This document shows, piece by piece, positions 22,155 to 49,408 of a stretch of 64,000 nt of DNA. A program made the position numbers and the translations under genes. Numbering within the stretch: position 1 is the first letter of the stretch; every line of letters starts with the position of its first letter. Under the pieces are notes generated by a model. That model searched no databases, was not told the origin of the DNA, and worked only from the letters and a program-made list of their open reading frames with translations. The DNA is taken from NCBI RefSeq assembly GCF_000720635.1, contig NZ_JOCF01000010.1, positions 114,932 to 178,931 on the forward strand. The letters run 5' to 3'. The stretch comes from Streptomyces sp. NRRL WC-3742 (lineage in GTDB: Bacteria > Actinomycetota > Actinomycetes > Streptomycetales > Streptomycetaceae).

Positions 22155-22173
22155 TCTGCCCTGGCGGGCGGGT

Positions 22174-22227
22174 GCGGAGGATACGAGATTCGAACTCGTG
22201 AGGGGTTGCCCCCAACACGCTTTCCAA
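22174..22227. repeat. att site 2 (unit B/unit C junction)
   Basis: A 54-bp copy of the tRNA-Ser 3' half, identical to the copy inside the intact tRNA gene at 46847-46900. It is therefore the left att of unit C and the right att of unit B. Confidence 0.93.
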
Positions 22228-28010: not shown

Positions 28011-28035
28011 AGCCCCCGCCCTGGCTGCCGGATGA

Positions 28036-28067
28036 GATGAATGAACCGTGAGTGATCCCGATTCATC
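28036..28067. promoter_or_regulatory. Inverted repeat between XRE gene and glycosyltransferase operon
   Basis: GATGAAT (28036-28042) and ATTCATC (28061-28067) are perfect arms with an 18-bp spacer in the divergent promoter region. Likely XRE operator. Confidence 0.5.
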
Positions 28068-28151
28068 ATTCTGTCACGGCCCTGATCGCCAGTTTCCTTC
28101 TTTTACCGACCCGGGTCGAACCCCGGGCTCCGAGAAGGAGGGTCACACGCG

Positions 28152-29306: not shown

Positions 29307-30007
29307 GCGGCTTCGACACGGTCCAGCTCTCCTACGACGAGCCGCTGGCCGACTCCCTGCACACCCGCCTCGCCCGGGTGCTGGGCGGCAACGTCAAGCG
29401 CCTGCACGGAGTCCGCGGGATGCGCCGCGCCTACCGGCTGACCGCCGAACTGGTCGACACCGACCAGTTCTTCCTCGCCGACGGAGACTTCGCCATCGAC
29501 CCCGCCTTCCCCGCGGCCACGGTGCAGCCGCTGGCCGAGGGGGTGTCCATGCGGGTCTGGCGGGCCGTCAACCCGGTCAACGGCCTCACCTACGGCTACG
29601 GCGGCCTCAAGCTGATCCGCACCAGCGCGCTACGGGAGATGGGCCAGGCCGTCGACGTGCTGGCCGCGCTGCCCGGACGCGTCGAGTTCAGCGAACACAG
29701 CGCCGGCACCACGTTGTTCAACCAGACCCCGTTCCATGCCTGGAAGGCGGGCTTCCGCGAGTGCGCGATGCTCGCGCGCGGCAGCGAGTACGGCATGACC
29801 GACACCTCCGCCCAGGAACGCATCCTGGCCTGGACAGCCAGCCAGGATGGCGACTTCGCCCACTACGCGGCTGCCGGTGCCCGCGACGGGTGCGACTTCG
29901 CCCACCTGGCGGCCCGCGACCCCAAGCGGTTCGAGGCGCTCAACGACCCAACCTGGCTGCACCGGCACTTCACCGCGCTGCACGGCGAGCAGGTGATCGC
30001 CGGATGA
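29303..30007 (+). CDS. Glycan-biosynthesis protein, GT-A-like
   Basis: A 234-residue protein with GTG start overlapping the previous stop. FFLADGDFAID resembles the DxD metal/nucleotide-sugar site of GT-A enzymes, and TTLFNQTPFHAWKAGFRECA is a distinctive central block. I do not recognise the exact family. It is coupled to glycosyltransferases on both sides, so it is probably another transferase acting on the same glycan. Confidence 0.65.
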   Translation: MSGFDTVQLSYDEPLADSLHTRLARVLGGNVKRLHGVRGMRRAYRLTAELVDTDQFFLADGDFAIDPAFPAATVQPLAEGVSMRVWRAVNPVNGLTYGYGGLKLIRTSALREMGQAVDVLAALPGRVEFSEHSAGTTLFNQTPFHAWKAGFRECAMLARGSEYGMTDTSAQERILAWTASQDGDFAHYAAAGARDGCDFAHLAARDPKRFEALNDPTWLHRHFTALHGEQVIAG

Positions 30008-31239
30008 GCGCCAGGACCGGGCCGCTCGTCCTGATCGAGCCGTACGCCCACCTCGGTGGCGGGCACCACCAGCGCACCCTGACCGCGCTCGCTGCCGCCC
30101 GCCCGGGTGCCGTAGTCATCACCCCGCAGGGGATCGCCGACGGCCCCGGCCCACTACTGCGGTCCGGCGCCTGCATTGCCGCCGGACCGGTGGGCCCGGC
30201 GGCGAAGGCCCTGCTGGTCGCAGCACGCGCGGCGGAAGGCGTCTCGACCGCCGGCCGGCGGGCCTTCCGCTCACGGCGCTGGCCGCTGCCGCTCCGCCGA
30301 CTGCCGCACCAGGCCACCCTCATCGCCCGCTGCCTGACCGAAGCCGCCTGCCTTCGCACCGCCCGCCGCCTCGCCGCGCAGCCTGGGGCGGTGCTGATCC
30401 TCAGCGCGAGCGAGGCCCTGCACGGCGTGGCCGCCCTGCTCGGCGGCGGCCGACACCTGCGGTTCATCCACGAGCTCGTCACCACCGAGGACCGGCCGCT
30501 CCGCTGGCTGGGCCGACTCGCCGTGCGGGGCGAGAAGCGCGTGGTCGCGCTCTACCCGACCACCGCCGTCCGCGACCAGCTCCAGCGGCGCTTCCCCCAC
30601 CTGCCCGCCCGGGTGCGGGCGTTCGCGGTCGACGACGGTCGGCGCCTGACTGAGGCCGAACGCGACGTCGCCCGCTCTGCCTTCACCATTCCCACTGGTG
30701 CGACGGCCGTGTGCCTGGTCGGCGGCTGGTGGCCGTACAAGGACCTCGCCACCGTCGACGCCGCCCTGGCCCGCATCACCGAGCCGCTGCACGTTCTGGT
30801 CTGCGGCACCCCGCTGGACGACGCGGTACTCGAACGCTGGCACCGCCTGCCCCTCGTCCGAGTCCACACCGTGCCCGGCCCGGTCGGCGAAGACGTCCTT
30901 CGGCTCGTCTACGCCGCCGCCGATGCAGCCCTGGTGGCACGGCGTCCCGGGACCGGCAAGGAGTCGGGACTGGTCATGGACGCCGCCCGGCTCGGGGTGC
31001 CGCTGATCATCTCCGGGCACGACCCGGACCTGACCGAGCAGCTGGCCGGACAGCCCTGGGCCCAGCTCTTCTCGGCCGGCGACCCGGACGCCCTCGCCAA
31101 GACCCTGGACCAGCTGGCGGACGGGCCGCCCGCCCGGCCGGGGATGCGGGCCCCGGCGGTGCTGGACATGCTCCCGGCCTCCGAGCAGGCCGCCTACCTC
31201 ACCGACATCTACACCGACCTGGTCAAGGAGTACCGATGA
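30004..31239 (+). CDS. Glycosyltransferase (GT-B-like)
   Basis: A 411-residue protein. The N-terminal half has EPYAHLGGGHHQRTL and the C-terminal half has VCLVGGWWPYKDLATV and RPGTGKESGLVMDAARLGVP, a GT4-type donor site. The ATG overlaps the previous stop (ATGA). It contains an arginine-rich segment near residue 85 (AFRSRRWPLPLRRLPHQ) that could touch the membrane. Third gene of the glycosylation operon. Confidence 0.8.
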   Translation: MSARTGPLVLIEPYAHLGGGHHQRTLTALAAARPGAVVITPQGIADGPGPLLRSGACIAAGPVGPAAKALLVAARAAEGVSTAGRRAFRSRRWPLPLRRLPHQATLIARCLTEAACLRTARRLAAQPGAVLILSASEALHGVAALLGGGRHLRFIHELVTTEDRPLRWLGRLAVRGEKRVVALYPTTAVRDQLQRRFPHLPARVRAFAVDDGRRLTEAERDVARSAFTIPTGATAVCLVGGWWPYKDLATVDAALARITEPLHVLVCGTPLDDAVLERWHRLPLVRVHTVPGPVGEDVLRLVYAAADAALVARRPGTGKESGLVMDAARLGVPLIISGHDPDLTEQLAGQPWAQLFSAGDPDALAKTLDQLADGPPARPGMRAPAVLDMLPASEQAAYLTDIYTDLVKEYR

Positions 31240-32126
31240 CGCCCGCCTCCCCCGCCCTGGTCGCCGTGATCGGCCCGGTCGAACCGGCCCTGCTGGCCGC
31301 GTGGACCGCCCACTACCGCGTGCTCGGCGTCGAGCGCTTCCACCTCGCCTTTCATTTTTCCGGTAACGTCCACGACGCCTGGCGCCGCCAACTGCTCGAC
31401 ACGGCCCAGAACCTCGGCCTCCCCACAGGCCAGGTCAGCACCGGTCCGTGGCACGAGCACACCAACACCGAACTGCGCGACCAGCTACGCGAGCAGGCCG
31501 GCCCCGGTTGGCACCTGCTCGCCGACTCCGACGAGTTCCACACCTACCCGGCCCCGCTCGCCGAGGTCACCGAGGTAGCCGAAGAGAACGGCCGGGCGGT
31601 GGTGGGCGGCTTGATGCTCGACCGCGTAACCGCTGACGGCCGACTCGCTCTCTGGCGCCCCGAGACCGGACTCGACCGCGCCTTCCCGCTCGGCGGCCAC
31701 CTCACCCACCGCCTCCTCCAGGGTGACCCCCGCAAGATCGTCCTCGCGCTCTCGGACGTCACGGTCGCCTCCGGCAACCACCGCGCCCCCGGCCGTAAGC
31801 CCGACCCTCACACTCTCGCGTGCGTCCACCACTTCAAGTGGCGCTCCGGCGTCCTGGACGACCTGCGCCGCCGGGTCGACCACTTCGCCTCCGGTACCTG
31901 GACCGAGCACACCCCGGCCGTCCGGACCGAGGCCACCCGCCTGCTGCAGCACATCGACCGCCACCACGGCCGCATCGACGTCTCCGACCACCGCCTGGCC
32001 TTCCGCCACGTCACCCTCGACCGCCTGCCCGACGACTGGGCCGCCGAAGCCGCCCAGATTCACGCCGCCTGGCGCCCGCCTCGTCAGAGCCAGCCCGGCT
32101 CCACGATCTCCTCGCCCTCGTCCTGA
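31236..32126 (+). CDS. Family 2-type glycosyltransferase
   Basis: A 296-residue protein with ATGA overlap to the preceding gene. The GT-A core includes YRVLGVERFHLAFHFS and LLADSDEFHTYP, a DxD-like site of GT2/GT92-type enzymes, and a later CVHHFKWR block. Its last 43 bp overlap a convergent P-loop kinase gene on the other strand. Fourth glycosyltransferase-like gene in the operon. Confidence 0.8.
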   Translation: MTPASPALVAVIGPVEPALLAAWTAHYRVLGVERFHLAFHFSGNVHDAWRRQLLDTAQNLGLPTGQVSTGPWHEHTNTELRDQLREQAGPGWHLLADSDEFHTYPAPLAEVTEVAEENGRAVVGGLMLDRVTADGRLALWRPETGLDRAFPLGGHLTHRLLQGDPRKIVLALSDVTVASGNHRAPGRKPDPHTLACVHHFKWRSGVLDDLRRRVDHFASGTWTEHTPAVRTEATRLLQHIDRHHGRIDVSDHRLAFRHVTLDRLPDDWAAEAAQIHAAWRPPRQSQPGSTISSPSS

Positions 32127-32590
32127 GGCGCCTCGAAGCGGGCGAAGAAGTCGTCCAGAGCCTCAGGGGTCACGATCAGTGCGTTCGCGTCCCCGCGCTG
32201 GTTGCGCTCGGCCAGCCTGCGCAGCAGCTCGTTCCGCTCGACGGGGAAGTACAGCAGCCGCCACCGACCGCCGGCGGCCTCCACCAGCTCCTTCATGTCG
32301 TCGCGGTCCTTGCGCGGCCACAGCCCGTGGTCCCACACCACGTCCCGGCCCTCGGCGACCAGCTCGACCAGCCGGGAGTGCAGCTCGTCGACGACCGGCG
32401 CCTCCTTCTCGAAGTAGGCGTTCTCCGGATAGTCCACGCCGTACCGGCCGTGCCGCTCGTGGACGACCTCGTCCACCGACAGCCGCACCGCACCCCGAGG
32501 CTCCAGCTCCCGCTGGGCATAGGTCGTCTTCCCCGAACCGGTGAGGCCCACCAGCAGGAACACCACCGGACTGCTCTCGCCCACTGCCAA
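32084..32590 (-). CDS. P-loop kinase-like ATPase
   Basis: A 168-residue protein with Walker A LVGLTGSGKTTYA near the N-terminus, a following RLSVDEVVHE, VVWDHGLWPRKDRDD in the lid region and the short C-terminus typical of zeta-toxin/kinase-like small ATPases. It probably phosphorylates a small molecule. It sits on the opposite strand inside the glycosylation cluster, overlapping its neighbour by 43 bp. Confidence 0.82.
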   Translation of the reverse strand: MAVGESSPVVFLLVGLTGSGKTTYAQRELEPRGAVRLSVDEVVHERHGRYGVDYPENAYFEKEAPVVDELHSRLVELVAEGRDVVWDHGLWPRKDRDDMKELVEAAGGRWRLLYFPVERNELLRRLAERNQRGDANALIVTPEALDDFFARFEAPQDEGEEIVEPGWL

Positions 32591-32687
32591 CTCTCCTCAC
32601 CACCAACAGCGTTCACCGGCAAGTCTGCCACCACGCCGGCTCCGGGAACTGCGTTCCGCACCCTCCGCCACCCGAAGGAGTACACGC

Positions 32688-33605
32688 GTGCCCGCCTCCG
32701 CCCTCGCCCGCCTGCTGCGGGCCTACGTCCGCCACGCGCCCGGAACAGTCGGCAAGGCCCAGCTCATCGACCGTTTCCTCGACGATCATCTGCGAACCCG
32801 TCCCCTCCACACCACGGCCCGGCTGCTCTCAGGTGACCTGGTCACCGTCACCACCAGCGACGTCATCCAGAGGTACCAGTACCTCTTCGGCGAGTGGGAG
32901 CCGAACCTAAGCACCTTCCTGCGCGACCGCCTGCGGCCCGGGGACACCTTCATCGACGTCGGAGCCCACCGCGGCGCGTTCAGCCTCCTGGCCTCCCACG
33001 CTGTCGGCCCGCACGGCCGAGTCGTAGCCATCGAGCCCACCCCACAGTTCCACGACGACCTCACCACCGCGGCCACCACCAACCACCGAGCCAACATCCG
33101 CACCGTCCGCTCGGCCGCCTCCGACACCACCGGCACGCTGGTCCTCTACCTGGAGGACCCGGCCAACCTCGGCCACACCACCGCCGTCCGGCCCCGCCAC
33201 GTCCACATGACCTTCCACGTGCCGACCGCGCCGCTCGCCGAACTGCTCAGTCAGGCTGAACTCTCCACCGCCCGGGTCATCAAGATCGACGTCGAGGGCG
33301 CCGAGGCGGCGGCGGTCAGGGGACTGCTGCCCGCGCTCCCGCACCTGCGCGAGGACATCGAGCTGGTCGTGGAAGTCACCCCCAGGCTCCTGGCCAAGCA
33401 GGGCGAGAGCGCCGCCGGCATCATCGACACCCTGCGCGAGCACGGCTTCCACGCCTACACCCTCACCAACGACTACGACCCGGCCACCTACCCCCGGACC
33501 ATGCGCCGCCCACAGCCGCCCGTCCGGTGCACCGAGACCCCGGAGCAGATGACCGACCTGGTCTTCTCCCGCACCGACGCCGACCGCCTCACGCTCAGGC
33601 GCTGA
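32688..33605 (+). CDS. FkbM-family methyltransferase
   Basis: A 305-residue SAM-dependent methyltransferase. The SAM motif is FIDVGAHRGAFSLLA, then VVAIEPTPQFHDDL, and the FkbM signature VIKIDVEGAEAAAVRGL. The GTG start was chosen for GAAGGAG 8 bases upstream; longer frames overlap the kinase gene. FkbM enzymes O-methylate sugars and polyketide groups, so it probably modifies the product of the upstream glycosyltransferases. Confidence 0.9.
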   Translation: MPASALARLLRAYVRHAPGTVGKAQLIDRFLDDHLRTRPLHTTARLLSGDLVTVTTSDVIQRYQYLFGEWEPNLSTFLRDRLRPGDTFIDVGAHRGAFSLLASHAVGPHGRVVAIEPTPQFHDDLTTAATTNHRANIRTVRSAASDTTGTLVLYLEDPANLGHTTAVRPRHVHMTFHVPTAPLAELLSQAELSTARVIKIDVEGAEAAAVRGLLPALPHLREDIELVVEVTPRLLAKQGESAAGIIDTLREHGFHAYTLTNDYDPATYPRTMRRPQPPVRCTETPEQMTDLVFSRTDADRLTLRR

Positions 33606-38902: not shown

Positions 38903-40225
38903 TCAGCCTCTGCTGCCCGCTGCGGTGGCGTTCACGGGGTGGACTGCGGGGCAGTAGCGCCGCCAGGCGTCGAGGAACTTGTTGCGCAGGTAGCCCTTGC
39001 GCTGGGTTCCATCGGGCATGCGGACGTTGCCAGAGGAGATGCCGAACTCGCGGAGCATCGCGCCGAGGCCGCGCGGGGTCAGCCCGCCTCGGCTGGTCTC
39101 GGCCCAGGGGGCCTCGGGGTCGCCGTTGAGGGTGAACAGCAGTTGGTCGGTGGCGATGCTGTCCGGCTCACCAGCGGTGTGGAAGATCCGCCGGATGTCC
39201 GCGAGGATCCGCGCGCCGCCGGGATTGTCCTCCTCGGTCTGGACCTCGGCGTCGACCATCCGCTTGCACGCCTGCCGGGCCAGGCGAGGCCAGGGTCCTC
39301 CGGCGAGGTCGGCGATGATCACCAGGGGTTCCCAGGTGTCGGCGGCGCGGTCCTCGACCGGCATGGCGGGCTCCAGGCGCAGGGCCCGGTCAGCGAGCGG
39401 TGCCGCCCAGCGGGCGATCTTGTCCCGGATCGCGTGCAGGGCGGGCCGGTCCCGCTGGGTGCGGTACGGGGCGACGCGCTCGCCCTCGGCTCGGCGGCGC
39501 ATGCGGATCACGATCGAGCGGTCCATGATCGTGTCGGGGAGGTCGCCGATGCCGGCGATTGCCGCCATGGCGAAGGTGGGGAACTTGCGCGGGGTGTGGT
39601 CGTTGCCGACGACCCGCAACACGTAGCGGTCGCGCTGGTGCCCGGCGTTGAGCAGGCCGCGCATCTCCTCGTTCTTCTCCGCCGCCTTCGGACTGCCGAA
39701 GATCGTGTCCGCCTCGTCCACCAGCAGGGTGGGCGGCTCCTCGCTGATCGTGCGGAAGATGGCGGCCGGAGAAGAGTTCACCGTCAGCATCGGCTGATGG
39801 ACCGTCTCGGCGAGCACGTCGAGCAGGCGGGACTTGCCGCAGCGTTTGGCCGGGCCGACCACGGCCAGGCGCGGGGCGTGCTGCCACGAGCACTGCAGAT
39901 GGGTCGCCGCGACCCACAACGTGGTGGCGTCCAGGGCCTGGCCGGAGGGAAGGATCACGAACTTCGCGATCTGGGCCCTCAGCTGCGCGAGCAGGTCGGC
40001 GCCCTCGGTCGCCTCGGTGTCGGGCATCAGGTCGGTCCCGTCCGGGACGGTGGGCTCGGCAGGCGCCGCCTCGGCGTCGCGTCCACAGGCTGTGGACGCG
40101 AGGGCCTGCTGGGCGGGCAGGTAGGTGCCGGGCTCGCCGGCCTTGGCCACGGGCGGCCATGCGACAGCGGGCTTGTCCGCTGCGAGGGGTGTGGCGTGGG
40201 GCTGGGAGGCAGTAACCTCGGTCAT
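38903..40225 (-). CDS. DUF3631 ATPase, element replication protein candidate
   Basis: A 440-residue protein. Residues 110-300 form an AAA+-like core: Walker A variant VVGPAKRCGKSRLL, Walker B PTLLVDEADTIF and sensor-like RSIVIRMRRR. The C-terminal DUF3631 part follows. Such ATPases sit in the replication modules of actinomycete integrative elements, often beside a primase-polymerase, which is absent here. The ATG at 40225 follows GAGGATCTCC. Downstream (transcriptionally) lies the iteron-like region. Confidence 0.85.
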   Translation of the reverse strand: MTEVTASQPHATPLAADKPAVAWPPVAKAGEPGTYLPAQQALASTACGRDAEAAPAEPTVPDGTDLMPDTEATEGADLLAQLRAQIAKFVILPSGQALDATTLWVAATHLQCSWQHAPRLAVVGPAKRCGKSRLLDVLAETVHQPMLTVNSSPAAIFRTISEEPPTLLVDEADTIFGSPKAAEKNEEMRGLLNAGHQRDRYVLRVVGNDHTPRKFPTFAMAAIAGIGDLPDTIMDRSIVIRMRRRAEGERVAPYRTQRDRPALHAIRDKIARWAAPLADRALRLEPAMPVEDRAADTWEPLVIIADLAGGPWPRLARQACKRMVDAEVQTEEDNPGGARILADIRRIFHTAGEPDSIATDQLLFTLNGDPEAPWAETSRGGLTPRGLGAMLREFGISSGNVRMPDGTQRKGYLRNKFLDAWRRYCPAVHPVNATAAGSRG

Positions 40226-40384
40226 GGAGATCCTCACTCGGCGGCTCCGGGGGGCAACCCGGTCCGCCGTAGGTCGACTGTCCTGGGATGGGCGGTGGCG
40301 AGGTTTTCGATCAGCCCCCGGTGTTCGTAGCGCCGGGGGCTTCGCGTTTTCCTGGGGGCATTCGGGCTGGCGCCCGGCCCGGCT

Positions 40385-40567
40385 CAACCTCCTCTCGGTT
40401 GGTAATTTCATGCTGTCATGATCGAACGTAGCGGGACGTCGGGCCACTGTCAAGCGATTCGCGCATGACTACCTCAACCTCTCTCGGCATTTGTGCTGGC
40501 CGGACTGATTCGTGGAGGTGTTGTGAAGGTCCGCTCAACCGCTTGGCGGTTGGGAATTCCATGCTGC
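40385..40567. promoter_or_regulatory. Duplicated operator in divergent element promoter
   Basis: Two copies of CAACC-N8-GGTTGG followed by AATT and CATGCTG lie at 40385-40416 and 40536-40567. In the second, CAACCGC-TTG-GCGGTTG is a perfect palindrome. They stand in the 396-bp region between the DUF3631 gene and the XRE gene and probably bind the XRE regulator, coordinating replication and its own synthesis. No other gene is visible in this gap. Confidence 0.65.
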
Positions 40568-40621
40568 TACAGTCGCTCCTGTCGTTGCGTCGCGCCTGCT
40601 CGCAATCGGAAGGAGGTTGGT

Positions 40622-41143
40622 ATGGTCAACCCCATGGTGCATCGGTACAAGGCCCTGGAGGGCGAGGCCCTCGTGGCCCACAACCTGAAGGTCTTGCGCA
40701 AGGCCGCCCGCCTCTCCCAGGAGGATGTGGCCGAACGCATGACCCGGCTCGGCTTCAAGTTCCACCAGACCCAGGTCGCCAAGATCGAGAACGGAACCCG
40801 CCCGGTCCGCTTCGACGAGGTGATCGGCCTGGCCAAGGCACTCAGTGTCCCGCCATCGAACTTCATGACCGAAGCCGTGGCTGGCCCGGACGAACCGGAC
40901 TACGAGCTGCAGGAAGCAGGCTTCGCCGTCGAGAAGGCCGAGCAGGAGTGGAGAACCGCCCACGACCTCGAACAGGCCGCCAAGGCCCGGTACGACGAGG
41001 CCTTGCGCACTTACGAGGAGATCGCCGAACGGCTCGAAGCCCAAGGCATCGACCTCGGGCCCTCCGGTGCCGAGCCCACGTGGTACCCGGCCCCCAACTC
41101 CCAGTGGGACCCGCTCCGCAAGGATCCCTCGGCTGACCGGTAA
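40622..41143 (+). CDS. XRE-family element regulator
   Basis: A 173-residue protein with an XRE helix-turn-helix at residues 20-80 (NLKVLRKAARLSQEDVAERM, then QVAKIENGTRPV) and a helical coiled C-terminal half (FAVEKAEQEWRTAHDLEQAA). GGAAGGAGG precedes the ATG. Its position between replication gene and excisionase/integrase matches control genes such as korSA or pra of pSAM2-like elements. It likely acts at the paired operators upstream. Confidence 0.87.
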   Translation: MVNPMVHRYKALEGEALVAHNLKVLRKAARLSQEDVAERMTRLGFKFHQTQVAKIENGTRPVRFDEVIGLAKALSVPPSNFMTEAVAGPDEPDYELQEAGFAVEKAEQEWRTAHDLEQAAKARYDEALRTYEEIAERLEAQGIDLGPSGAEPTWYPAPNSQWDPLRKDPSADR

Positions 41144-41170
41144 GCGAGCCCGCTCGGCTCGCCGCCTGGG

Positions 41171-41510
41171 CATCATTGCCGCGATCCGGCCGGAAACCTA
41201 AAAAGGTCGGACTGGCGCACGCGCCCAAGATCTTTTTTCGTTTCCGGCCGGGGCCGCCGTAGTGTGCCCGTCCCGCCCACCATCCCGCTGCCCGACCCCC
41301 GGCGCTACGAACGCTGAGGGCCGCGCCAGCTCGGGGATCGACGGCCTCGCGGAGCATCATCGCCGCGACCCGGCTCGCGACCTAAAACGCTCGACCCGGC
41401 CCATGCGACCGAGATCGTTTTAGGTTCCGAGCCGAGACCGCCGTAGCGTGCCCGCCCTGCCCACCACCTATCCGCTGCCCGACCCCCGGCGCTACGAACG
41501 TCGAGGGCCG
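41171..41510. repeat. Duplicated hairpin unit before excisionase
   Basis: Two homologous units (41171-41323 and 41355-41510) fill the 447-bp gap between the XRE gene and xis. Each begins CATCAT, contains a long inverted repeat, then CGCCGTAG, and ends with CCCGACCCCCGGCGCTACGA and GAGGGCCG. Arms are 12 bp (41186-41197/41240-41251) in unit 1 and 19 bp with one mismatch (41371-41389/41416-41434) in unit 2. Arm sequences differ but pairing is kept, indicating selection on structure. Confidence 0.75.
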
Positions 41511-41590
41511 CCCGGCAACCCGCCAATCCACCGCCCATCCCAACAGTCGCCACGGCGGCGCGTTGCCCCGCGCCGCTGGGAGGAACACCT

Positions 41591-41896
41591 ATGCCTGAAA
41601 CGCCTCTGTCTCTCGCGCGCCTTGCCGGCGCAATCGGCCTCACGGAGCACCAGCTCCTTGCCCTCGTCGCCAGCTGCGGCACGGAGGTGCCGGACCCGAC
41701 GCTCGTCGCCCTCACTGTGGAGGAAGCCGCCCGTCGTCTCGGCGTCGGCCGGACGACCATGTACGCCTTGGTCGCCTCCGGCGAAGTCCCGTCCGTGACG
41801 ATCGGCCGTCTCCGCCGAGTGCCCGCCGAGGCGCTCAAGGAGTACGTGGCCGCCCGTGCGCAGGCCACCCCTTCGACCGTCGCGCTCGCGGCCTGA
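41591..41896 (+). CDS. xis: Excisionase-type helix-turn-helix protein
   Basis: A 101-residue protein. Residues 45-95 are a MerR/BldC-like excisionase HTH: LTVEEAARRLGVGRTTMYAL and GRLRRVPAEALKEYV. GGGAGGA precedes the ATG. The stop lies 14 bp before the integrase start, so the two are cotranscribed. It should bend DNA at the element ends to direct excision. Confidence 0.9.
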   Translation: MPETPLSLARLAGAIGLTEHQLLALVASCGTEVPDPTLVALTVEEAARRLGVGRTTMYALVASGEVPSVTIGRLRRVPAEALKEYVAARAQATPSTVALAA

Positions 41897-41910
41897 GCGG
41901 GGGAAACCGA

Positions 41911-43155
41911 ATGGCGAACACCCGCAAGCCCAACGGCGACTCCTCGATCTACCAGGGCAGTGACGGCCGCTGGCACGGCCGCGTCACGGTCGGCGTCAAG
42001 GACGACGGCACCCCCGACCGCCGTCACGTCAGCGCCAAGACCCGCCCCGAGGTCACGACCAAGGTCCGCAAGCTGGAGAAGCTGCGCGACAACGGCACCG
42101 TGCCCAAGGCCGGCCAGAAGTGGACGGTCGGCAAGTGGCTGACCCACTGGATCAAGGAGATCGTGCCGGGCACCGTCAGCGAGAACACATACGCCGGATA
42201 CGAGGTCGCCGTCCGAGTGCACCTCGTCCCCGGCCTCGGCGCGCACCGCCTGGAGAAGCTGGAACCCGAGCACCTGGAGCGCTTCTACAAGAAGATGCGG
42301 GCCGCCGGCAGTGCCGCCGGTACCGCCCACCAGGCCCACCGCACCATCCGTGTCGCCCTCGGCGAGGCCCTGCGGCGCGACCACCTCACCCGCAACGTGG
42401 CCACGATCGCCAAGGCCCCGAAGCTCGAAGAGGAGGAAGTCGAGCCGTTCGAGATCGAGGAGGTCCAGGCGCTCATGGACACGGCGCGCAAGCGCCGCAA
42501 CTCCGCCCGCTGGATCTTCGCGCTTGCCCTCGGCCTCCGTCAGGGCGAGGTGCTCGGGCTCCAGTGGAAGGACGTCGACTTCGCCCGAGGCGTCGCCTGG
42601 GTCAAGCGCGGCCGACTGCGGCCCAAGTACCGGCACGGCTGCGGCGACCGCTGCGGGCGCAAGCCCGGCTTCTGCCCGAAGAAGGAGCCGATCCGGCGCG
42701 AGACCAAGGACACCAAGTCCCGAGCCGGGCGACGCGCGGTGCCGCTGCCCGAGCAGCTCGTTGCGATCCTCCGGCTGCACAAGGAGGAGCAGGACCGCGA
42801 GCGGGCCCTCGCGCGCGACCTCTGGACGGACAAGGGCTACGTCTTCACCTCGGAGACCGGCGAGCCGCTCAACCCCAGCACCGACTACCACCACTGGAAG
42901 CGACTCCTGCGCGAGGCCGGCATCCGTGACGGCCGCCTCCACGACGCCCGCCACACCGCCTCGACCGTCCTCCTCCTGCTCGGCGTGCCGGAGCGGATCG
43001 TGATGGCGATCATGGGCTGGTCCTCGACCTCGATGGCCCAGCGCTACCAGCACGTCACCGAGCCGATGCTGAACGACGTCGGCAAGAAGATCGGCGCGGC
43101 TCTGTGGGGTGACGTCGGATCTGGCCCGGAGGAGCCTGACGAAGACGCGGCCTGA
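41911..43155 (+). CDS. int: Tyrosine site-specific integrase
   Basis: A 414-residue integrase with an arm-binding N-terminal region, core-binding SAM-like domain and catalytic domain. Active-site residues are Arg210 (ALGLRQGE), His344 and Arg347 (LHDARHTA) and Tyr379 (MAQRYQHV). A cysteine-containing insertion (HGCGDRCGRKPGFCP) lies within the catalytic domain, as in many Streptomyces integrases. It presumably recombines the 54-bp tRNA-Ser cores. It is 3.7 kb from the nearest att, because the Ubl cargo sits between. Confidence 0.96.
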   Translation: MANTRKPNGDSSIYQGSDGRWHGRVTVGVKDDGTPDRRHVSAKTRPEVTTKVRKLEKLRDNGTVPKAGQKWTVGKWLTHWIKEIVPGTVSENTYAGYEVAVRVHLVPGLGAHRLEKLEPEHLERFYKKMRAAGSAAGTAHQAHRTIRVALGEALRRDHLTRNVATIAKAPKLEEEEVEPFEIEEVQALMDTARKRRNSARWIFALALGLRQGEVLGLQWKDVDFARGVAWVKRGRLRPKYRHGCGDRCGRKPGFCPKKEPIRRETKDTKSRAGRRAVPLPEQLVAILRLHKEEQDRERALARDLWTDKGYVFTSETGEPLNPSTDYHHWKRLLREAGIRDGRLHDARHTASTVLLLLGVPERIVMAIMGWSSTSMAQRYQHVTEPMLNDVGKKIGAALWGDVGSGPEEPDEDAA

Positions 43156-43188
43156 GCGAGCGTCGGCTCAGATCATCTGACCTGATGC

Positions 43189-43223
43189 CCGAGGGCCCGA
43201 CTGCGATGCGGTCGGGCCCTCGG
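43189..43223. terminator. Terminator behind integrase
   Basis: 13-bp perfect arms (CCGAGGGCCCGAC and complement) around a 9-base loop, 34 bp after the integrase stop. Confidence 0.85.
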
Positions 43224-43228
43224 CGCGA

Positions 43229-43513
43229 GTGAACGGCGGCGTCCTGGTCAGGCGAGAGCGTCAGGCATGGCCCTCCTGCCCGGCACCGGCGACAAGACCT
43301 GCGGCATCTTCCTCACTTACCAGGGCAAGGCATTTCTGCAGTCCAACGACACCGAACCAGGCCCTCGTCGTCACCATCGAATTCCTCGACCTCGTCACAC
43401 GCATCGGCGCCGAATGCTGCGTCACCCAAGTCCGCGAACTCGCTCCCGCCTTCAGGCCCTACCAACGGGTCGGAGGCGTTCCCGAACTGCTGGAACGCCT
43501 CCGAGTGGCCTAA
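43229..43513 (+). pseudogene. Decayed coding remnant between int and Ubl operon
   Basis: Two overlapping frames each hold a protein-like piece: GDKTCGIFLTYQGKAFLQSN in one and ALVVTIEFLDLVTRIGAECC to VGGVPELLERL in the next. Together they look like one small gene broken by a frameshift. I do not recognise the family. It lies tail to tail with the JAB-E1 gene. Confidence 0.3.
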
Positions 43514-43539
43514 CCATTGGAACTCGATCGTGCTGCCGC

Positions 43540-44895
43540 TCAGAGCGGCGTGCTTCCCCGCCGTCCGAGCCCGAGCTGCCCGCTCGATGTGCACCAGCGG
43601 CAGTTCTGACCCTGACGAGGATTCTGAAGATCGCGCTGGCGCGTTCGAGGTCGGTGGATGACCGAGGCGTGGTCACCCTCCTCGTCGTGGAGGCCGACCA
43701 CCGAGAGTACGAAGTGGTTGACCGCCTCCGCGGCCGCGAGCGTGTTCAGGGTGATCACGCTCGGTGCGGGGACCCCGGGAATGTACTGCGCTGCCTCGCG
43801 TTCCTCGGCGGGGTGCATGTCGATGGCCAAGCGGGTCGGATCGATGAGCCGGTTGCACCACAGGCATCCCGAGCCGGGCAGCACGAGGCGAGTGGCGGTG
43901 TGGATCTGTCCCACCTCCCCCTGAGGGGTCAGCGGAACCTTGACTCCGACCTGGGTGGCCGGGACGAGGTACTGCTGAACGGCGGCGTTCACCCAATGGC
44001 GGGCAGCGTCACCGTCGGCGGCCAGGAAGATCCAGTCACAGCGAACGAGCTCCTCGAGCGACTCCGGACGCTCCACACGCTGGGCGATCTCGGTCAGGTG
44101 GACGTCCGGGTTGGCGCGCCGGGCGTTGCGCGCGGCGAGCTCGGTCTTGAGCCGCCCGATGTCCCCGAGCTCAGAAGCCACGAGCCGGGGAAGGTTCGTC
44201 TTCTCAACGGCCTCGTCGTCGATCAGTACGAGCTCACCCACGCCCAGCCGGGCGAGTTCCTCGACGAGGATGCTGCCGACACCGCCGAGTCCCACGACGG
44301 CGACGCGCAACCGACGAAGCGTCTCCTGGCCCAGGTCGCCGAGGAGGCGTGCCTGGCGGTCGTGCAGGGAGTCCGGGCACCCTTCCGCGGCCGGCTGGGA
44401 GCGCAGCCGCAGCAGGTTCCCGGTCGGGACGATCGTCTCTGCTAGCTCTTCCCGGCGGCCGTCGGGCAGCCAGAGATCTCCGGCTGCGGCATGGTCGGTG
44501 AGTACGAGCGCTCCGACCACCTGGCCGCTGATCTGGCCGAGGCTTGGGTAGCCGCGCTCGTGGCTGGCCAGGTCGATCTCGGAGAAGCCCACGTGGTCGA
44601 GTCCGAGGTGGGCGTGAACAGCGATGTATGCCAGTCCCTCGTCCCGGGCCCTGATCACCGCGTCGCGGACGAAGGTCGGAGCGAGAGCCCGGTGGCCGAA
44701 CTCGCCGGGGACATAGTCCGTTCCCTCGTCGGCGAGGATCAGCTCGCGGGCGAGTAGCCGGGGTCCGCGCGGTCCGTCGGCGAGGCCGGCGAGAAGGACA
44801 GCGCCGCGGGCGGCGGACCCCAGAACGTGATCAGACAGACGATCCCAGATCTTGGGCGGGATGGTGAGGCTCCAGCCCATGGCGGGCGGGTTCAC
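43540..44895 (-). CDS. JAB protease-E1 fusion (ubiquitin-like activation)
   Basis: A 451-residue fusion. Residues 25-160 are a JAB/MPN metalloprotease: His94-x-His96, then Ser105 and Asp108 (VHAHLGLDHVGFSEID). Residues 195-420 are a ThiF/MoeB-type E1 adenylating domain with the nucleotide loop VVGLGGVGS, LVLIDDEAVEKTNLPR and two CxxC pairs (344/347 and 432/435) for a structural zinc. The GTG start overlaps the E2-like stop (GTGA). E1 would adenylate the Ubl tail and JAB would cleave Ubl. It is the last gene of the Ubl operon. Confidence 0.9.
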   Translation of the reverse strand: MNPPAMGWSLTIPPKIWDRLSDHVLGSAARGAVLLAGLADGPRGPRLLARELILADEGTDYVPGEFGHRALAPTFVRDAVIRARDEGLAYIAVHAHLGLDHVGFSEIDLASHERGYPSLGQISGQVVGALVLTDHAAAGDLWLPDGRREELAETIVPTGNLLRLRSQPAAEGCPDSLHDRQARLLGDLGQETLRRLRVAVVGLGGVGSILVEELARLGVGELVLIDDEAVEKTNLPRLVASELGDIGRLKTELAARNARRANPDVHLTEIAQRVERPESLEELVRCDWIFLAADGDAARHWVNAAVQQYLVPATQVGVKVPLTPQGEVGQIHTATRLVLPGSGCLWCNRLIDPTRLAIDMHPAEEREAAQYIPGVPAPSVITLNTLAAAEAVNHFVLSVVGLHDEEGDHASVIHRPRTRQRDLQNPRQGQNCRWCTSSGQLGLGRRGSTPL

Positions 44896-45278
44896 TGGTC
44901 GGCGAGCCACTTGCGAATCCTCTCGGCCTTGAGTGCGGCGCTGTCGATGTTCGGGTCGCGGCGGTTCGAGCGCCTGGAGATCTGCAGGGCCGTCCTGTCC
45001 TGCCACGTGACCGACTGGATGGCCTGCCCGTGGGCTCCGCCATCTGTTCGAGCGAGCGGGCCGACGTAGTGCGGGTAGACATCGGCGTCCGGGTACGCCG
45101 CGCTGATCTGGAAGCCAAGCCAGGTAGTCGACGGCACGTAGGCCGCTCCGATCTCGACCTGCTCCACGATGACGTAGACCCCGCCGGAGCCGTCCGGGAC
45201 CACCTCGACCGGATGACCGGCGAAGTGGGCTCGGACGGCTTCGACGGCTTCGGCGATTGCCGGAGTCGGGGAGGTCAC
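44892..45278 (-). CDS. E2-like (UBC-fold) protein without cysteine
   Basis: A 128-residue protein resembling prokaryotic E2-family proteins: an N-terminal helix, beta strands GGVYVIVEQVEIGAAYVP, a YPDADVYPHYVGP segment like the YP..HP part of UBC folds, then ALQISRRSNRRDP and a C-terminal helix KAERIRKWLADQ. The protein has no cysteine at all, so it cannot form the E2 thioester. It is coupled by GTGA overlaps to the Ubl gene before it and the JAB-E1 gene after it. The assignment rests mainly on context. Confidence 0.7.
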   Translation of the reverse strand: MTSPTPAIAEAVEAVRAHFAGHPVEVVPDGSGGVYVIVEQVEIGAAYVPSTTWLGFQISAAYPDADVYPHYVGPLARTDGGAHGQAIQSVTWQDRTALQISRRSNRRDPNIDSAALKAERIRKWLADQ

Positions 45279-45553
45279 GAGTTGTCGTCCGGCGGTACGG
45301 CGAGGAACTCCTGGTGGGTGTGGACGCGGATCGGCTCCTCGTCGTCCACGACCTCGTACCGGCCATGGATGCGCTTGACCGAGAGCTGGAAGCCCACGTC
45401 GATCGGCAGGCCCTGCGAGATCGCGGCCTGCTTGATCTCCAGGCCGGTCACCTCGCGGTCCGGCAGCGTTACGTCCTGGTTGTTGACCTTCACGGTGACG
45501 CTGACGTGCTGGTGGGGGGCCGTCTTGGTGGTCGTGTCGATGGGGGTTTCCAT
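45275..45553 (-). CDS. Ubiquitin-like (multiubiquitin-type) protein
   Basis: A 92-residue beta-grasp protein. After a threonine-rich start it reads VTVKVNNQDVTLPDREVTGL, a helix EIKQAAISQGLP, FQLSVKRIHGRYEVVD and HTHQEFLAVPPDDNS, the pattern of the multiubiquitin domain (DUF2604-like). A single domain is present and the C-terminus has no Gly-Gly. AAAGAGG precedes the ATG. It is first in the operon, 81 bp from the nearest of two 18-bp operators shared with the divergent XRE/ImmA genes. Confidence 0.85.
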   Translation of the reverse strand: METPIDTTTKTAPHQHVSVTVKVNNQDVTLPDREVTGLEIKQAAISQGLPIDVGFQLSVKRIHGRYEVVDDEEPIRVHTHQEFLAVPPDDNS

Positions 45554-45634
45554 CGGGCACCTCTTTCCGATCTTGATGGTGTCGTTCCTGGGACTGCTCG
45601 GGCACCCGGCATGGATGCGTCGAGATGCAGTCAC

Positions 45635-45697
45635 TGTTTGAGATGTCGAACATCTCTTGAGGATCAAGGTAAGCCGTGGTGTTCGAGATGTCAAACA
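45635..45697. promoter_or_regulatory. Two 18-bp operators between Ubl operon and XRE/ImmA genes
   Basis: TGTTTGAGATGTCGAACA (45635-45652) and TGTTCGAGATGTCAAACA (45680-45697) are near-palindromes 45 bp apart centre to centre. They lie in the divergent promoter region, the second 43 bp before the XRE start. Likely binding sites of the XRE repressor controlling both directions. Confidence 0.8.
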
Positions 45698-45740
45698 CTG
45701 GTAGAAAGGAGGTAGGGAACGGAGACCGAGGAGGAGGGCG

Positions 45741-46124
45741 ATGGCCCGGACGAAGGTGAACGTGGCCGCCCTCTACGCGGCGCTGGACGCCGCAAGGGCG
45801 TCGAGGGACCTCTCGTGGAGGCAGCTGGCTGTCCAGGTGGGTGTCAGCCCGTCGACCATGACGCGGTTGGCCAATGGCAACCGTCCGGACGTGGACGCGT
45901 TTGCCGCGCTGGTGAGCTGGCTCGGCGAGCCGGCCGAGAGCTTCATGGTGGACGAGGGCGTCCGACTGGGTGAAGTCCCCGAAGAACCTGAGCTTCTCGT
46001 GCAGCTTGCCCCGCTACTGCGAGCTCGCTCCGACTTGGGCGAGGCAGATGTGAAGCACTTGGAAGAGCTGATCGGTGCGGCCGTGCGTCGGTTTGCCGCC
46101 GACCGAGAGTCCGGTTCGAGGTGA
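45741..46124 (+). CDS. XRE-family repressor paired with ImmA-like protease
   Basis: A 127-residue protein. Residues 8-70 form an XRE helix-turn-helix (LSWRQLAVQVGVSPSTMTRL) and the C-terminus is helical and acidic (ADVKHLEELIGAAVRRF). AGAAAGGAGG lies upstream. It is followed after 3 bp by a zinc protease gene. In such pairs the protease removes the repressor when a signal, often DNA damage, arrives. Its target should be the two operators in front of the Ubl operon. Confidence 0.88.
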   Translation: MARTKVNVAALYAALDAARASRDLSWRQLAVQVGVSPSTMTRLANGNRPDVDAFAALVSWLGEPAESFMVDEGVRLGEVPEEPELLVQLAPLLRARSDLGEADVKHLEELIGAAVRRFAADRESGSR

Positions 46125-46127
46125 GGC

Positions 46128-46724
46128 GTGGGGCAGCGATGGACGAAGAAAGCGCTGGAAGACCTGGCTCTGGAAGAGCGGGCCCGCATCCAGGTCGGGC
46201 TTCATCAGCCCATCGATCTTGCTCGCCTTGCGGATGAGTACGGCATTCCGGTCTACCCGCTGAGCGAGCTCGGCGACTCGGGCTGCCCGGCGGAGACTCT
46301 GGAGTACTTTGCCAGCGAGCGTGCGGGCACCTGGTCTGCGGCTCTGGTTCCGGTAGGTACAGCGCGCTTCATCGTAGAGAACAGCTCGCACAATCCGCAG
46401 CGTCGCCGGTCGAACGTCGCGCACGAGATGGCACACCTTCTGCTGGAGCACGAGTTCAGCAGCGTCGTGTTCACTGACGGGGGGTGCCGGAGCCTGGACC
46501 CGATCGTGAAGACGCAGGAGGCGCAGGCCCTCGCGCTGTCGGGCGAACTTCTGGTTCCTATGAAGGCTGCCATCGAGGTGGCCTTCAGGGACTGGACCGA
46601 CGAGCAGGTGGCGACGCGGTTCGATGTGAGCATCGAGTTCGCGCGTATGCGCATGAACGCGTCCGGTGCGCGGACGATCGTGTCGCGTGCCCGGGCCAAG
46701 CAACGCCGCTCCGGAGTGGGGTAG
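46128..46724 (+). CDS. ImmA/IrrE-family metallopeptidase
   Basis: A 198-residue protein with the zinc-protease motif HEMAH (His99, Glu100, His103) in RSNVAHEMAHLLLEHEF, typical of ImmA/IrrE, and a helical C-terminal half. The GTG start lies 4 bp behind the XRE stop. ImmA-type proteases cleave the partner repressor, which here would open the divergent ubiquitin-like operon and make it inducible. Confidence 0.9.
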   Translation: MGQRWTKKALEDLALEERARIQVGLHQPIDLARLADEYGIPVYPLSELGDSGCPAETLEYFASERAGTWSAALVPVGTARFIVENSSHNPQRRRSNVAHEMAHLLLEHEFSSVVFTDGGCRSLDPIVKTQEAQALALSGELLVPMKAAIEVAFRDWTDEQVATRFDVSIEFARMRMNASGARTIVSRARAKQRRSGVG

Positions 46725-46760
46725 CAGGCGGCGGCCCGGCCGCGGGGGTCCAAAAATCGG

Positions 46761-46784
46761 AACTGAGACCAAAACTGAGACCAG
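46761..46784. repeat. Arm-type repeat at unit C right end
   Basis: AACTGAGACCAA and AACTGAGACCAG form a 12-bp direct repeat. The same pair stands inside the left end (22322-22344). It lies 63 bp from the att core. Likely integrase arm sites. Confidence 0.7.
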
Positions 46785-46792
46785 GGCACGAA

Positions 46793-46826
46793 GAAGGCCC
46801 CGACCGGGAACCCGGTCGGGGCCTTC
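46793..46826. terminator. Terminator between immA and tRNA
   Basis: 16-bp perfect arms (GAAGGCCCCGACCGGG and complement) with almost no loop. It serves the ImmA gene and, from the other side, the tRNA. Confidence 0.85.
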
Positions 46827-46846
46827 AACTGCCTTGCTAGGCAAAG

Positions 46847-46900
46847 GCGGAGGATACGAGATTCGAACTCGTGAGGGGTTGCCCCCAACACGCTTTCCAA
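46847..46900. repeat. att site 3, inside the intact tRNA-Ser
   Basis: A 54-bp core identical to 22174-22227. Because it includes the tRNA 3' half from anticodon loop to discriminator, insertion leaves a complete tRNA gene. Confidence 0.93.
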
Positions 46901-46932
46901 GCGTGCGCCCTAGGCCACTAGGCGAATCCTCC
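46848..46932 (-). tRNA. tRNA-Ser (anticodon GGA)
   Basis: An 85-nt class II tRNA. The acceptor stem GGAGGAT pairs with ATCCTCC, the anticodon stem is CACGC/GCGTG around TTGGAAA (anticodon GGA), the long variable arm is TTGGGGGCAACCCC, and the T arm has TTCGAATC. No CCA is encoded. It is the insertion target of the mobile units; its 3' half is duplicated at 13973 and 22174. Confidence 0.97.
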
Positions 46933-47035
46933 GTGGGAGAGCTTAGTACATGTTTCGGGGTGCTCGCGACCACCTATCCCGCAGGCGGGAGGGGTGGGGT
47001 GGCCTGTGGATCGTCGGGGTGGGAATCCGGTAGTG

Positions 47036-47132
47036 TGGGGGGCAGCCCCTCGTGTGGCGCTATCTCTTTGAACCCCCCCAGGGCCGGAAGGCAGCAAGGG
47101 TAGGAGAGCTCTGGCGGGTGCACGGGGGGTCT
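47036..47132 (+). ncRNA. ffs: Small signal recognition particle RNA
   Basis: The conserved tetraloop region GGGCCGGAAGGCAGCAAGGG and the pairing of AGCCCCTCGTGT with GCACGGGGGGT at the two ends identify bacterial 4.5S-type SRP RNA. It guides SRP to nascent membrane proteins. Ends are approximate. It lies between tRNA-Ser and dnaX. Confidence 0.9.
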
Positions 47133-47197
47133 TCGCGTTCTCGGGGGAGGGCGGGAGGGCGCCGCGTTTGTCGGTCCGTCCCGATATCGTCGGGGGT

Positions 47198-49408
47198 GTG
47201 TCCCTAGCCCTGTACCGCCGCTATCGCCCCGAGACCTTCGCGGAGGTCATCGGGCAGGAGCACGTGACCGCTCCGCTCCAGCAGGCCCTGCGCAACAACA
47301 GGGTCAACCACGCGTACCTGTTCAGCGGGCCGCGCGGGTGTGGGAAGACGACGAGTGCGCGCATCCTCGCCCGTTGCCTGAACTGTGAGCAGGGGCCGAC
47401 GCCGACGCCCTGCGGGGAGTGCCAGTCCTGTCGGGACCTGGCGACCGGGGGGCCCGGGTCGATCGACGTGATCGAGATCGACGCCGCCTCGCACGGTGGT
47501 GTGGACGACGCGCGTGAGCTGCGGGAGCGGGCGTTCTTCGCGCCGGTGCACAGCAGGTACAAGATCTTCATCCTGGACGAGGCGCACATGGTGACCTCGG
47601 CCGGGTTCAACGCGCTGCTCAAGGTGGTGGAGGAGCCGCCGGAGCACCTCAAGTTCATCTTCGCGACCACCGAGCCGGAGAAGGTGATCGGGACGATCCG
47701 GTCCCGGACGCACCACTATCCGTTCCGGCTGGTCCCGCCCGGCACGCTGCGCGACTACCTGGCGGACGTCTGCGGGCGCGAGGGCATCGAGGTCGAGGAC
47801 CCGGTGTTCCCGCTGGTGGTGCGGGCGGGCGCGGGTTCGGTGCGTGACTCGATGTCGGTCATGGATCAGCTGCTGGCCGGGGCGGCCGAGGGCGGCGTGA
47901 CGTACCAGATGGCGACGTCGCTGCTGGGGTACACGGACTCGGCGCTGCTGGACGAGGTGGTGGACGCGTTCGCCGCGCAGGACGGGGCGACGGTGTTCCA
48001 GGTCATCGACCGGGTGGTCGAGGGCGGGCACGATCCGCGGCGCTTCGTGACGGACCTGCTGGAGCGGCTGCGCGACCTGGTGATCCTCGCCACCGTGCCG
48101 GAGGCGGGGGAGAAGGGGCTGATCGACGCCCCGGCGGACCGGATCGCGGTGATGCAGGCCCAGGCGGACGGGTTCGGTGCGGCCGAGCTGAGCCGGGCCG
48201 CGGACATTGTCAACACCGGGCTGACGGAGATGCGCGGCAACGCGGCGCCGCGGCTGCAGCTGGAGCTGATCTGCGCCCGGGTGATGCTGCCGGGTGCGTA
48301 CAGCGACGAGCTGTCGCTGCAGGCGCGGCTGGACAAGTTGGAGCGACGGGCGGCAGCGGGTGGCGTCATGCCCGCGGCCGTGCCGATGGCGGCGCCGCCG
48401 GTTCCCATGGCCGTTCCCGCGGCCGTTCCCCCGGCCGGTCCCGTGGCGGAGGCGCCTGCCCCCGCGTCTGCCCCCGCACCTGCCCCCGCACCTGCCCCCG
48501 TGCCCGCGCCTGCCCCGGCGCCTGCCCCCGCGCCGCAGCCGGCGGCTCCTGCCGGTCCTGCGCCGGGCGCCTGGCCGATCCCGCGCAGCTTCCCGTCCGG
48601 AGGGGGTGCCCCCGCCGCGCCCCCCGCGCCGCAGGCGCAGCCGCAACCGCAGGCGCCCGCGCCGGCGCCCGTAGCGCCCACCCCGGCACCGGCCCCCGCA
48701 CCGGCGCCCGCCCCCGGCGCCCAGCCCTCCCCGGCCGCGCAGCAGGGCGCCGCACAGGTGCGCCAGCTGTGGCCGCAGATCCTGGAGGCGGTGAAGAACC
48801 GCCGCCGTTTCACCTGGATCCTGCTGAGCCAGAACGGCCAGGTGGCCGGCTTCGACGGCAGCGTGCTCCAGGTGTCGTTCATCAACGCCGGCGCCCGCGA
48901 CAGCTTCGTGAGCAGCAGCAGTGACGACGTGCTGCGCCAGGCGTTGTCCGACGCCCTGGGCGTGGACTGGCGCATCGAGTGCATCGTCGACCCGTCCGGT
49001 GGTGGCGGTGGCGGTACTGGTGGCGCCGGCGGTCCCGGCCCCGGTGGGGGCGCAGGAGGCGGTGGGGGCTGGGGTGCCCCGGCCCGTCCGGCCGCTGCCG
49101 CCGCCGCGCCGGTGCAGGCCCCGCCGCCGGTGGCCGTGCCGCAGCCGCAGGTCCAGCCCCAGACGCCCGTGCGGTCTCCGGCGCCGCCGCAGGCCGTCCA
49201 GGCGCCGCCCGTGCAGGCCGCGCCGGTCGTCCCGGCCAGGCCCGCGCAGGCTCCGCCCCAGCCGCCCGCCCCGGTGGTGGCGCCGGAGGACGACATCCCG
49301 GAGGAGGACGATCCGGATCTCGTCGAGGAGGCGTTCTCCGGTCAGGAGCTGATCATCCGCGAGCTGGGTGCCACGGTGCTGGAGGAGATCCACCACCGCG
49401 GCAACTGA
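47198..49408 (+). CDS. dnaX: DNA polymerase III gamma/tau subunit
   Basis: A 736-residue clamp-loader subunit. The AAA+ core has Walker [11 protein letters not shown], the four-cysteine zinc module ([19 protein letters not shown]), Walker B FILDEAHM and the SRC motif TIRSRTHH. Residues 400-535 are a long alanine/proline-rich linker, then a domain with [18 protein letters not shown], and another proline-rich linker and acidic tail. The start is GTG giving [11 protein letters not shown]; a TTG 30 bp earlier is less likely. Confidence 0.96.

What the first reader, a model, noticed from the sequence alone, without database searches (positions are those of the whole stretch)
43540..46724. Inducible ubiquitin-like operon (Ubl, E2-like, JAB-E1) on a mobile element
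Three GTGA-coupled genes encode a multiunbiquitin-type Ubl, an E2-like protein and a JAB-E1 fusion, the parts of a protein-conjugation pathway. They are controlled from a divergent XRE repressor/ImmA protease pair. Comparative genomics has predicted such bacterial operons, and related Bil and CBASS systems defend against phage. The compact three-gene form with fused JAB-E1, on an actinobacterial element next to att, looks little described.
Basis: partly seen in the sequence, partly recalled or inferred. Interest (0 to 1): 0.9.

Follow-up and report, generated by a model that had tools for sequence, protein, structure and literature searches.

The report
Glycine-less ubiquitin-like operon on mobile element
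A mobile stretch of what looks like actinobacterial DNA carries a small bacterial relative of the ubiquitin tagging system, of a kind predicted in 2006, whose tag ends in a fixed aspartate-aspartate-asparagine-serine tail instead of glycine and whose own tag-removing domain seems to have lost its catalytic residue.

The parts
45275..45553 (-). Ubl (BubA-like), 92 aa, single Multi_ubiq domain, ends ...VPPDDNS
   Evidence: PF14452 45.8 bits; AF2 pLDDT 82.4, beta-grasp; C-terminal Ser in 82 of 84 Ubls
44892..45278 (-). E2-like (BubB-like), 128 aa, no cysteine; GTG start overlaps Ubl stop
43540..44895 (-). JAB-E1 fusion (BubCD-like), 451 aa; JAMM HxH..S..D kept, Glu position is Ala29; CxxC..CxxC
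   Evidence: ThiF E 3e-35; BubCD E 6e-25 over residues 18-397; Glu comparison
45635..45652 (+). operator-like palindrome 1, TGTTTGAGATGTCGAACA
   Evidence: 2 matches in 64 kb, 0.01 expected; conserved
45680..45697 (+). operator-like palindrome 2, TGTTCGAGATGTCAAACA
45741..46124 (+). XRE/HTH protein, CapH-like repressor
   Evidence: HTH_31 over cut-off; PADLOC capH 24.1 bits
46128..46724 (+). M78 (IrrE/ImmA) protease, HExxH, CapP-like
   Evidence: PF06114 56.5 bits; PADLOC capP 38 bits, E 3e-10
46847..46900 (.). att repeat inside tRNA-Ser (gene 46846-46932, -)
22174..22227 (.). other att copy, 54 of 54 identical
41911..43155 (+). tyrosine integrase of the element
   Evidence: PF00589 E 1e-26
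41591..41896 (+). excisionase-like HTH_17 protein
   Evidence: PF12728
34762..36513 (-). MobA/VirD2-type relaxase
   Evidence: PF03432 E 4e-10
38903..40453 (-). DUF3631 protein of the element
   Evidence: PF12307 E 3e-72

Best explanation
A stress-inducible ubiquitin-like conjugation cassette, sister to Bub operons (class 6e), carried by a tRNA-Ser integrative element. Proposed steps: (1, inferred) the HTH protein binds the two operator-like sites and represses the divergent promoters. (2, inferred from CapH/CapP) DNA damage activates the M78 protease, which cuts the repressor, and the operon is switched on. (3, inferred) the Ubl is made already mature, with free C-terminal Ser92, so no trimming is needed. 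(4, inferred; the active-site residues are shown to be present) the ThiF domain adenylates the C-terminus. (5, inferred) with no conserved cysteine in E2, and no obvious catalytic one in E1, the activated Ubl passes to target proteins directly or through a serine ester, with the E2-fold protein as docking factor. (6, inferred) in the window's branch the JAB domain is kept as structure or as Ubl-binder but is probably dead as an isopeptidase, so tags are not removed by this protein.
Against: No biochemistry. One E1 cysteine (window Cys286) is kept in 79 of 89 rows and could be a thioester site, though ten lack it. The Ubl tail is low confidence in the model (mean pLDDT 46 for the last two residues). 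No complex could be predicted. The sites were found in only 6 of 84 loci, all near relatives, and L119 has only one-mismatch versions; a sigma-70-type promoter was not found. An M78 gene was found upstream in 45 of 83 loci, so this control is common, not universal. dN/dS of the Ubl is the least clear. A JAMM protein may use another acid near the site. Anti-phage function rests on context only.
Confidence: 0.62

Rival explanations
1. Ordinary thioester cascade: E1 uses Cys286 (or another Cys) and the E2-like protein is a UEV-like helper.
Against: Ten rows lack that Cys; by eye it sits in the Rossmann core shortly before the ATP-site Asp; solved Citrobacter BubCD has Ala there, though two Cys follow a few residues on (alignment).
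Confidence: 0.13
2. Sulfur-carrier system (ThiS/MoaD-like) rather than protein conjugation.
For: ThiF/MoeB models match the E1 domain.
Against: No Gly-Gly tail; no rhodanese or sulfur gene noticed among the neighbouring genes read; an E2-fold gene beside it in 86 of 89 loci; best solved matches are Bub proteins. The 25 NCBIfam matches shown are all far below cut-off.
Confidence: 0.06
3. MccB-like C-terminal chemistry: the ThiF domain makes a nucleotide or succinimide derivative at the Asn-Ser tail, giving a modified Ubl signal rather than a conjugate.
For: After Bub and UBA7, MccB is the next solved E1 relative; a nearly invariant Asn precedes the terminal Ser. The chemistry of MccB is recalled, not looked up.
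Against: An E2-fold partner and a JAB domain point to conjugation; the terminal residue is Ser, not Asn.
Confidence: 0.07
4. The repressor/protease pair controls the mobile element, not the operon.
For: ImmR/ImmA pairs regulate ICEs (recalled; start of the abstract of PMC10233336, on TnSmu1).
Against: The element has its own HTH gene at 40493-41143; the operator-like sites lie between the pair and the Ubl; the pair is beside the operon in L119, L010 and L013-L016, where no related integrase was found in the stretches held.
Confidence: 0.12

Closest known systems
Bub (bacterial ubiquitination-like) operons; solved Citrobacter BubA, BubB, BubCD (9EA4, 9EA8, 9EAE, 9EAV)
   Same: Multi-ubiquitin-type Ubl, E2 fold without Cys in the aligned part, JAB-E1 fusion; CapH/CapP-type regulators; mobile DNA
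   Different: Separate 92-row clade; Ubl ends DDNS, not Gly; no DUF6527 found; Ubl and E2 unfused (fused in L090); E1 keeps a CxxC..CxxC site that the Citrobacter form lacks; JAMM Glu lost in the window's branch
Operon class 6e of Iyer, Burroughs and Aravind 2006 (PMC1779556, passages and table row read by search)
   Same: PolyUbl (solo in one species), inactive E2/RWD-like protein, JAB fused to E1; mobile
   Different: Class also lists metal-binding protein Y (C-x3-C..H-x2-C), not found here. The paper says the remaining new Ubl families have no glycine or other highly conserved C-terminal residue; here the tail is nearly invariant
Bil (BilABCD)
   Same: Ubl, E2, E1, JAB logic
   Different: BilB has a catalytic Cys and BilD a Cys domain (PMC11354881 passages); the window E2 has no Cys
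CapH/CapP regulator of CBASS
   Same: HTH repressor plus M78 protease upstream of a conjugation-type operon
   Different: Weak profile scores (24 and 38 bits); ssDNA activation untested

Membership tests
Bub / class 6e | Ubl with Multi_ubiq beta-grasp domain | tested here: met
Bub / class 6e | E2-fold protein without catalytic Cys | tested here: met
   class described so in PMC1779556
Bub / class 6e | JAB fused to an E1 domain with its adenylation residues | tested here: met
Bub / class 6e | DUF6527 / metal-binding protein Y in the operon | tested here: not met
   0 of 88 clade loci by phmmer with two seeds, found only in L007 (many loci end soon after the JAB-E1). Annotated in 7 of 10 non-clade loci read (L007, L090, L110, L111, L113-L115), not in L112, L116, L117, so it may not be defining
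Bub / class 6e | Glycine at or near the Ubl C-terminus, or at the Ubl-E2 junction (my own criterion) | tested here: not met
   Gly in or near the tail in L007, L090 and L110-L116 (by eye); not in this clade. Hence filed as a variant, not a plain member
Bub / class 6e | Conjugation of Ubl to proteins | not testable with these tools
   needs biochemistry
JAMM/JAB isopeptidase | Glu + HxH + Ser + Asp (motif recalled) | tested here: not met
   HxH, S, D present; Glu replaced by Ala29
Bil | E2 with catalytic Cys | tested here: not met
   window E2 has no Cys
CapH/CapP | HTH repressor and M78 protease adjacent to the operon | tested here: met
   scores weak
CapH/CapP | ssDNA-activated cleavage of the repressor | not testable with these tools
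   needs biochemistry
Integrative mobilizable/conjugative element | integrase, relaxase, tRNA att repeats | tested here: met
   transfer apparatus not searched for

The most novel reading that the evidence does not exclude
A widespread lineage of ubiquitin-like conjugation in which the tag is activated through a nearly invariant C-terminal serine (DDNS) instead of glycine, without a catalytic cysteine in E1 or E2, and in which one branch, the window's, has turned its deconjugase into a pseudoenzyme, making tagging effectively one-way.
Probability: 0.35. Interest if true: 0.78.

Novelty: new variant of a known kind. Interest (0 to 1): 0.56.

Why it matters
Ubiquitin, its relatives and bacterial sulfur carriers are activated at a terminal glycine. 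A clade found in many phyla (its Ubl profile matches 1243 sequence clusters, of which the best 120 were read) that fixes a serine there, and shows no obvious catalytic cysteine, would show that the chemistry of ubiquitin-like tagging is broader than thought. It also offers a minimal three-gene system, with its own switch, that can be tested in Streptomyces or E. coli.

Tried and rejected
Thioester E2: rejected, no Cys in the E2. CBASS: no nucleotidyltransferase was noticed in the window genes read, but no dedicated search was made; the 25 PADLOC matches shown for the E1 are all generic E1-E2 models. Viral relatives: two scans of viral contigs found none. PHROGs gave two unnamed families for the JAB-E1 and none for the other two. 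Sigma-70 and terminator scan gave nothing. Rfam over 41000-47200 gave only the tRNA and SRP RNA. Papers: Ye et al. on the Bub mechanism, Gong 2025, Chambers 2024 and Lau 2022 are not held. I saw the Ye and Gong titles only in reference lists. My memory that Bub uses serine oxyester intermediates is recall and unverified; Ye et al. may already discuss tails or this clade. That the tail is not in print is therefore not claimed. The Tyr in place of the ThiF catalytic Cys is my own alignment by eye from memory of ThiF. Whether E2 Ser101 sits at the E2 cysteine place was not measured.

Rows dropped: the genome scan kept 80 of 111 relatives, so counts are on those 80, 8 plasmid loci and the window; L003/L065 are the same plasmid and L028/L029 have identical E1. 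Of 89 loci, 84 gave a Ubl and 86 an E2. The six with a miss are L038, L057, L077 and L082 (JAB-E1 at a contig start), L017 (JAB-E1 truncated) and L007 (outgroup, its E2 too distant for the model). The structure alignments used 50 of 84 Ubl rows and 52 of 86 E2 rows, without the plasmid rows and, for Ubl, without the extended-tail row L076. The protein search listed 120 of 1243 hits; four of those 120 do not end in Ser: P0052 and P0057 run on past DDNS, P0055 stops short, P0056 differs.
Full report
Observation. The window holds the operon as described. Reading the minus strand: Ubl 45553-45275, E2-like 45278-44892, JAB-E1 44895-43540, with GTGA overlaps at both joints. Pfam gives Multi_ubiq (45.8 bits, cut-off 24.5), Prok-E2_E (19.9 bits, below the cut-off of 25) and ThiF (121.9 bits); no Pfam JAB model is listed at E up to 1. 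Divergently, 45741-46124 is a small HTH protein and 46128-46724 an M78/IrrE-type peptidase; among PADLOC models capH (24 bits) and capP (38 bits) match, weakly, beside RmrA models.

Element. A 54-bp segment of the tRNA-Ser gene (46847-46900) recurs perfectly at 22174-22227 and with one mismatch at 13973-14026. Between the first two lie a tyrosine integrase, an excisionase-like protein, HTH, DUF3631, DUF2637 and a MobA/VirD2-type relaxase. The operon sits between int and the tRNA att. In genome G019 the same element backbone (int 90% identical; relaxase 64% over the part held) with the operon (JAB-E1 92%) is found next to a tRNA-Ser with the same anticodon. Of 150 genomes searched, the window's own included, 13 have a JAB-E1 relative at E 1e-20 or better, so 12 besides the own; three of these are same-genus copies at 66-98% identity (G019, G036, G015). 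The spread is sporadic, as cargo would be.

Cassette. Of 11 loci compared, 7 carry repressor and protease relatives beside the operon (L118, L119, L010, L013-L016); L120, L011, L012 and L002 do not. Element-backbone genes were found only in L118, within the stretches held. So the five genes seem to travel as a unit into different surroundings.

Operator-like sites. Two 18-bp palindromes TGTTYGANNNNTCRAACA lie between the divergent genes (45635, 45680; 2 matches in 64 kb, 0.01 expected). The core TTYGANNNNTCRAA occurs in pairs 38-45 bp apart in window, L010, L013, L014, L015 and once in L016: 6 of 84 loci, 11 sites in 44,940 upstream bases against 6 in 890,513 others. L118 has the pair. L119, tested afterwards, has no exact site, but its only two one-mismatch sites in 16 kb are both in the same gap, 37 bp apart. 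L120, without the regulators, has no exact site. That the HTH protein binds them is inferred, and the sigma-70 scan found no promoter. More widely an M78 gene lies upstream in 45 of 83 loci (34 divergent, 11 same strand) and was not found in 38, contig ends included.

A separate clade. A scan of genome contigs gave 111 relatives, 80 kept, with titles from Actinomycetota, Pseudomonadota, Chloroflexota, Cyanobacteriota, Acidobacteriota, Gemmatimonadota, Nitrospirota and others. A tree of 103 JAB-E1 rows puts 92, the window among them, in one clade (support 99, stem 1.49), apart from L090 (a Citrobacter plasmid homologue, 82% identical to the solved protein over the part searched) and the other non-clade plasmid lineages; the quick method and long branches such as L116 are caveats. 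In this clade no DUF6527 gene was found (0 of 88 loci). In the ten non-clade loci read, DUF6527 follows the JAB-E1 directly in L090, L111, L114 and L115, after a phosphotransferase gene in L007, L110 and L113, and is not annotated in L112, L116 and L117.

The tail. Of 84 Ubls, 77 end in DDNS, 2 EDNS, 1 DENS, 1 EDDS, 1 DDHS; L076 runs DDNS-SEPTC, L007 (outgroup) ends GGGV. In the protein search (1243 hits, 120 listed) 114 of 120 end DDNS; P0052 and P0057 have DDNS followed by four residues; P0053 ends DDHS, P0054 EEDS, P0055 stops at IPDD, P0056 differs. Of 59 longer proteins (130 aa or more) none has the motif inside, of 61 shorter ones one does, so it belongs to the C-terminus and not to the fold. 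In the 50-row alignment Ser92 is one of six invariant positions. L097 and L098, from genomes of the same order, end QEDS, still Ser. In the other lineages a glycine is at or near the tail or at the Ubl-E2 fusion joint (L007, L090, L110-L116, by eye). The three natural extensions after DDNS suggest that some members are trimmed to expose it.

Catalytic residues. E1: the GxGGxG glycines, Asn, Arg, Lys and Asp are in 89 of 89 rows, the four CxxC cysteines in 88 of 89. Other Cys columns reaching 20% are Cys286 (79 of 89) and four at lower frequency that are not Cys in the window. A Tyr (88 of 89) stands where I place the ThiF cysteine, by eye and from memory. E2: no Cys column reaches 20%; Ser101 (column S100) is in 85 of 86 and Lys117 (column K116) in 86 of 86. 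JAB: HxH, Ser and Asp in 88-89 of 89, Glu of DEHGAV in 86 of 89. The exceptions are window (SAARGAV), L010 (SGG-GAV) and truncated L017; L092, L104 and L094 also lack it, L095, L096, L097, L098 and L099 keep it. Window, L092, L094 and L010 are one clade (support 97; L104 was not in the tree), so one loss is likely. The JAB part stays under constraint (dN/dS 0.12 against L092, 0.23 against L094, 0.21 against L010). The Asp mutated in the PDB entry BubCD D104A is residue 104, in the HxH..SxxD stretch, in the L090 homologue.

Known context. Iyer et al. 2006 (PMC1779556; passages and table row by search) list row 6e: polyUbl, inactive E2/RWD-like protein, JAB fused to E1 and a metal-binding protein; they note absence of the cysteine, mobility, and that the remaining new Ubl families have no highly conserved C-terminal residue. 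Their actinobacterial entry is marked among those where some E1s carry another domain in place of JAB. PMC13373217 (EMBO J 2026; passages) says 219 of 544 Bub operons have CapW or CapH+CapP and that Bub has not been shown to protect against phage. PMC11354881 (section 8 and passages) repeats the 2006 description. PMC12687455 (passages) says that such systems, Bub named among them, appear to act mainly against phages; this speaks for a defence role, but as a review statement.

Verdict. A real operon of a known kind, in a distinct and widely spread sub-lineage whose glycine-less serine tail, lack of an obvious catalytic cysteine and, here, dead-looking JAB make it a new variant worth a bench test. 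The defence role is open.

Noticed in passing
window 13973-14026, 22174-22227, 46847-46900: Three copies of the tRNA-Ser att segment, so a second unit (13973-22174) lies in tandem; no integrase or relaxase was noticed in its larger ORFs, which look like secreted hydrolases and a LuxR-type regulator (by eye).
   Followed up: partly
window 26470-33605: Other cargo of the same element: peptide deformylase, two glycosyltransferase-like genes, an FkbM methyltransferase and an AAA_33 (zeta-like) kinase.
   Followed up: partly
window 43229-43513 +: A short plus-strand ORF between int and the end of JAB-E1 looks protein-like at its end and may be a gene remnant.
   Followed up: no
window 47041-47137: Small SRP RNA gene just beyond the tRNA-Ser.
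   Followed up: no
L100, L101 (G030, G087): Genomes of the same genus and family also hold distant JAB-E1 relatives at 29-30% identity that fall in the other, non-DDNS part of the tree.
   Followed up: partly
L112 1379-1872: The Ubl of Jiella pelagia looks frameshifted into two overlapping ORFs.
   Followed up: no
L116: A haloarchaeal plasmid has a row of small genes and a ThiF gene in the same order, on a very long branch.
   Followed up: no
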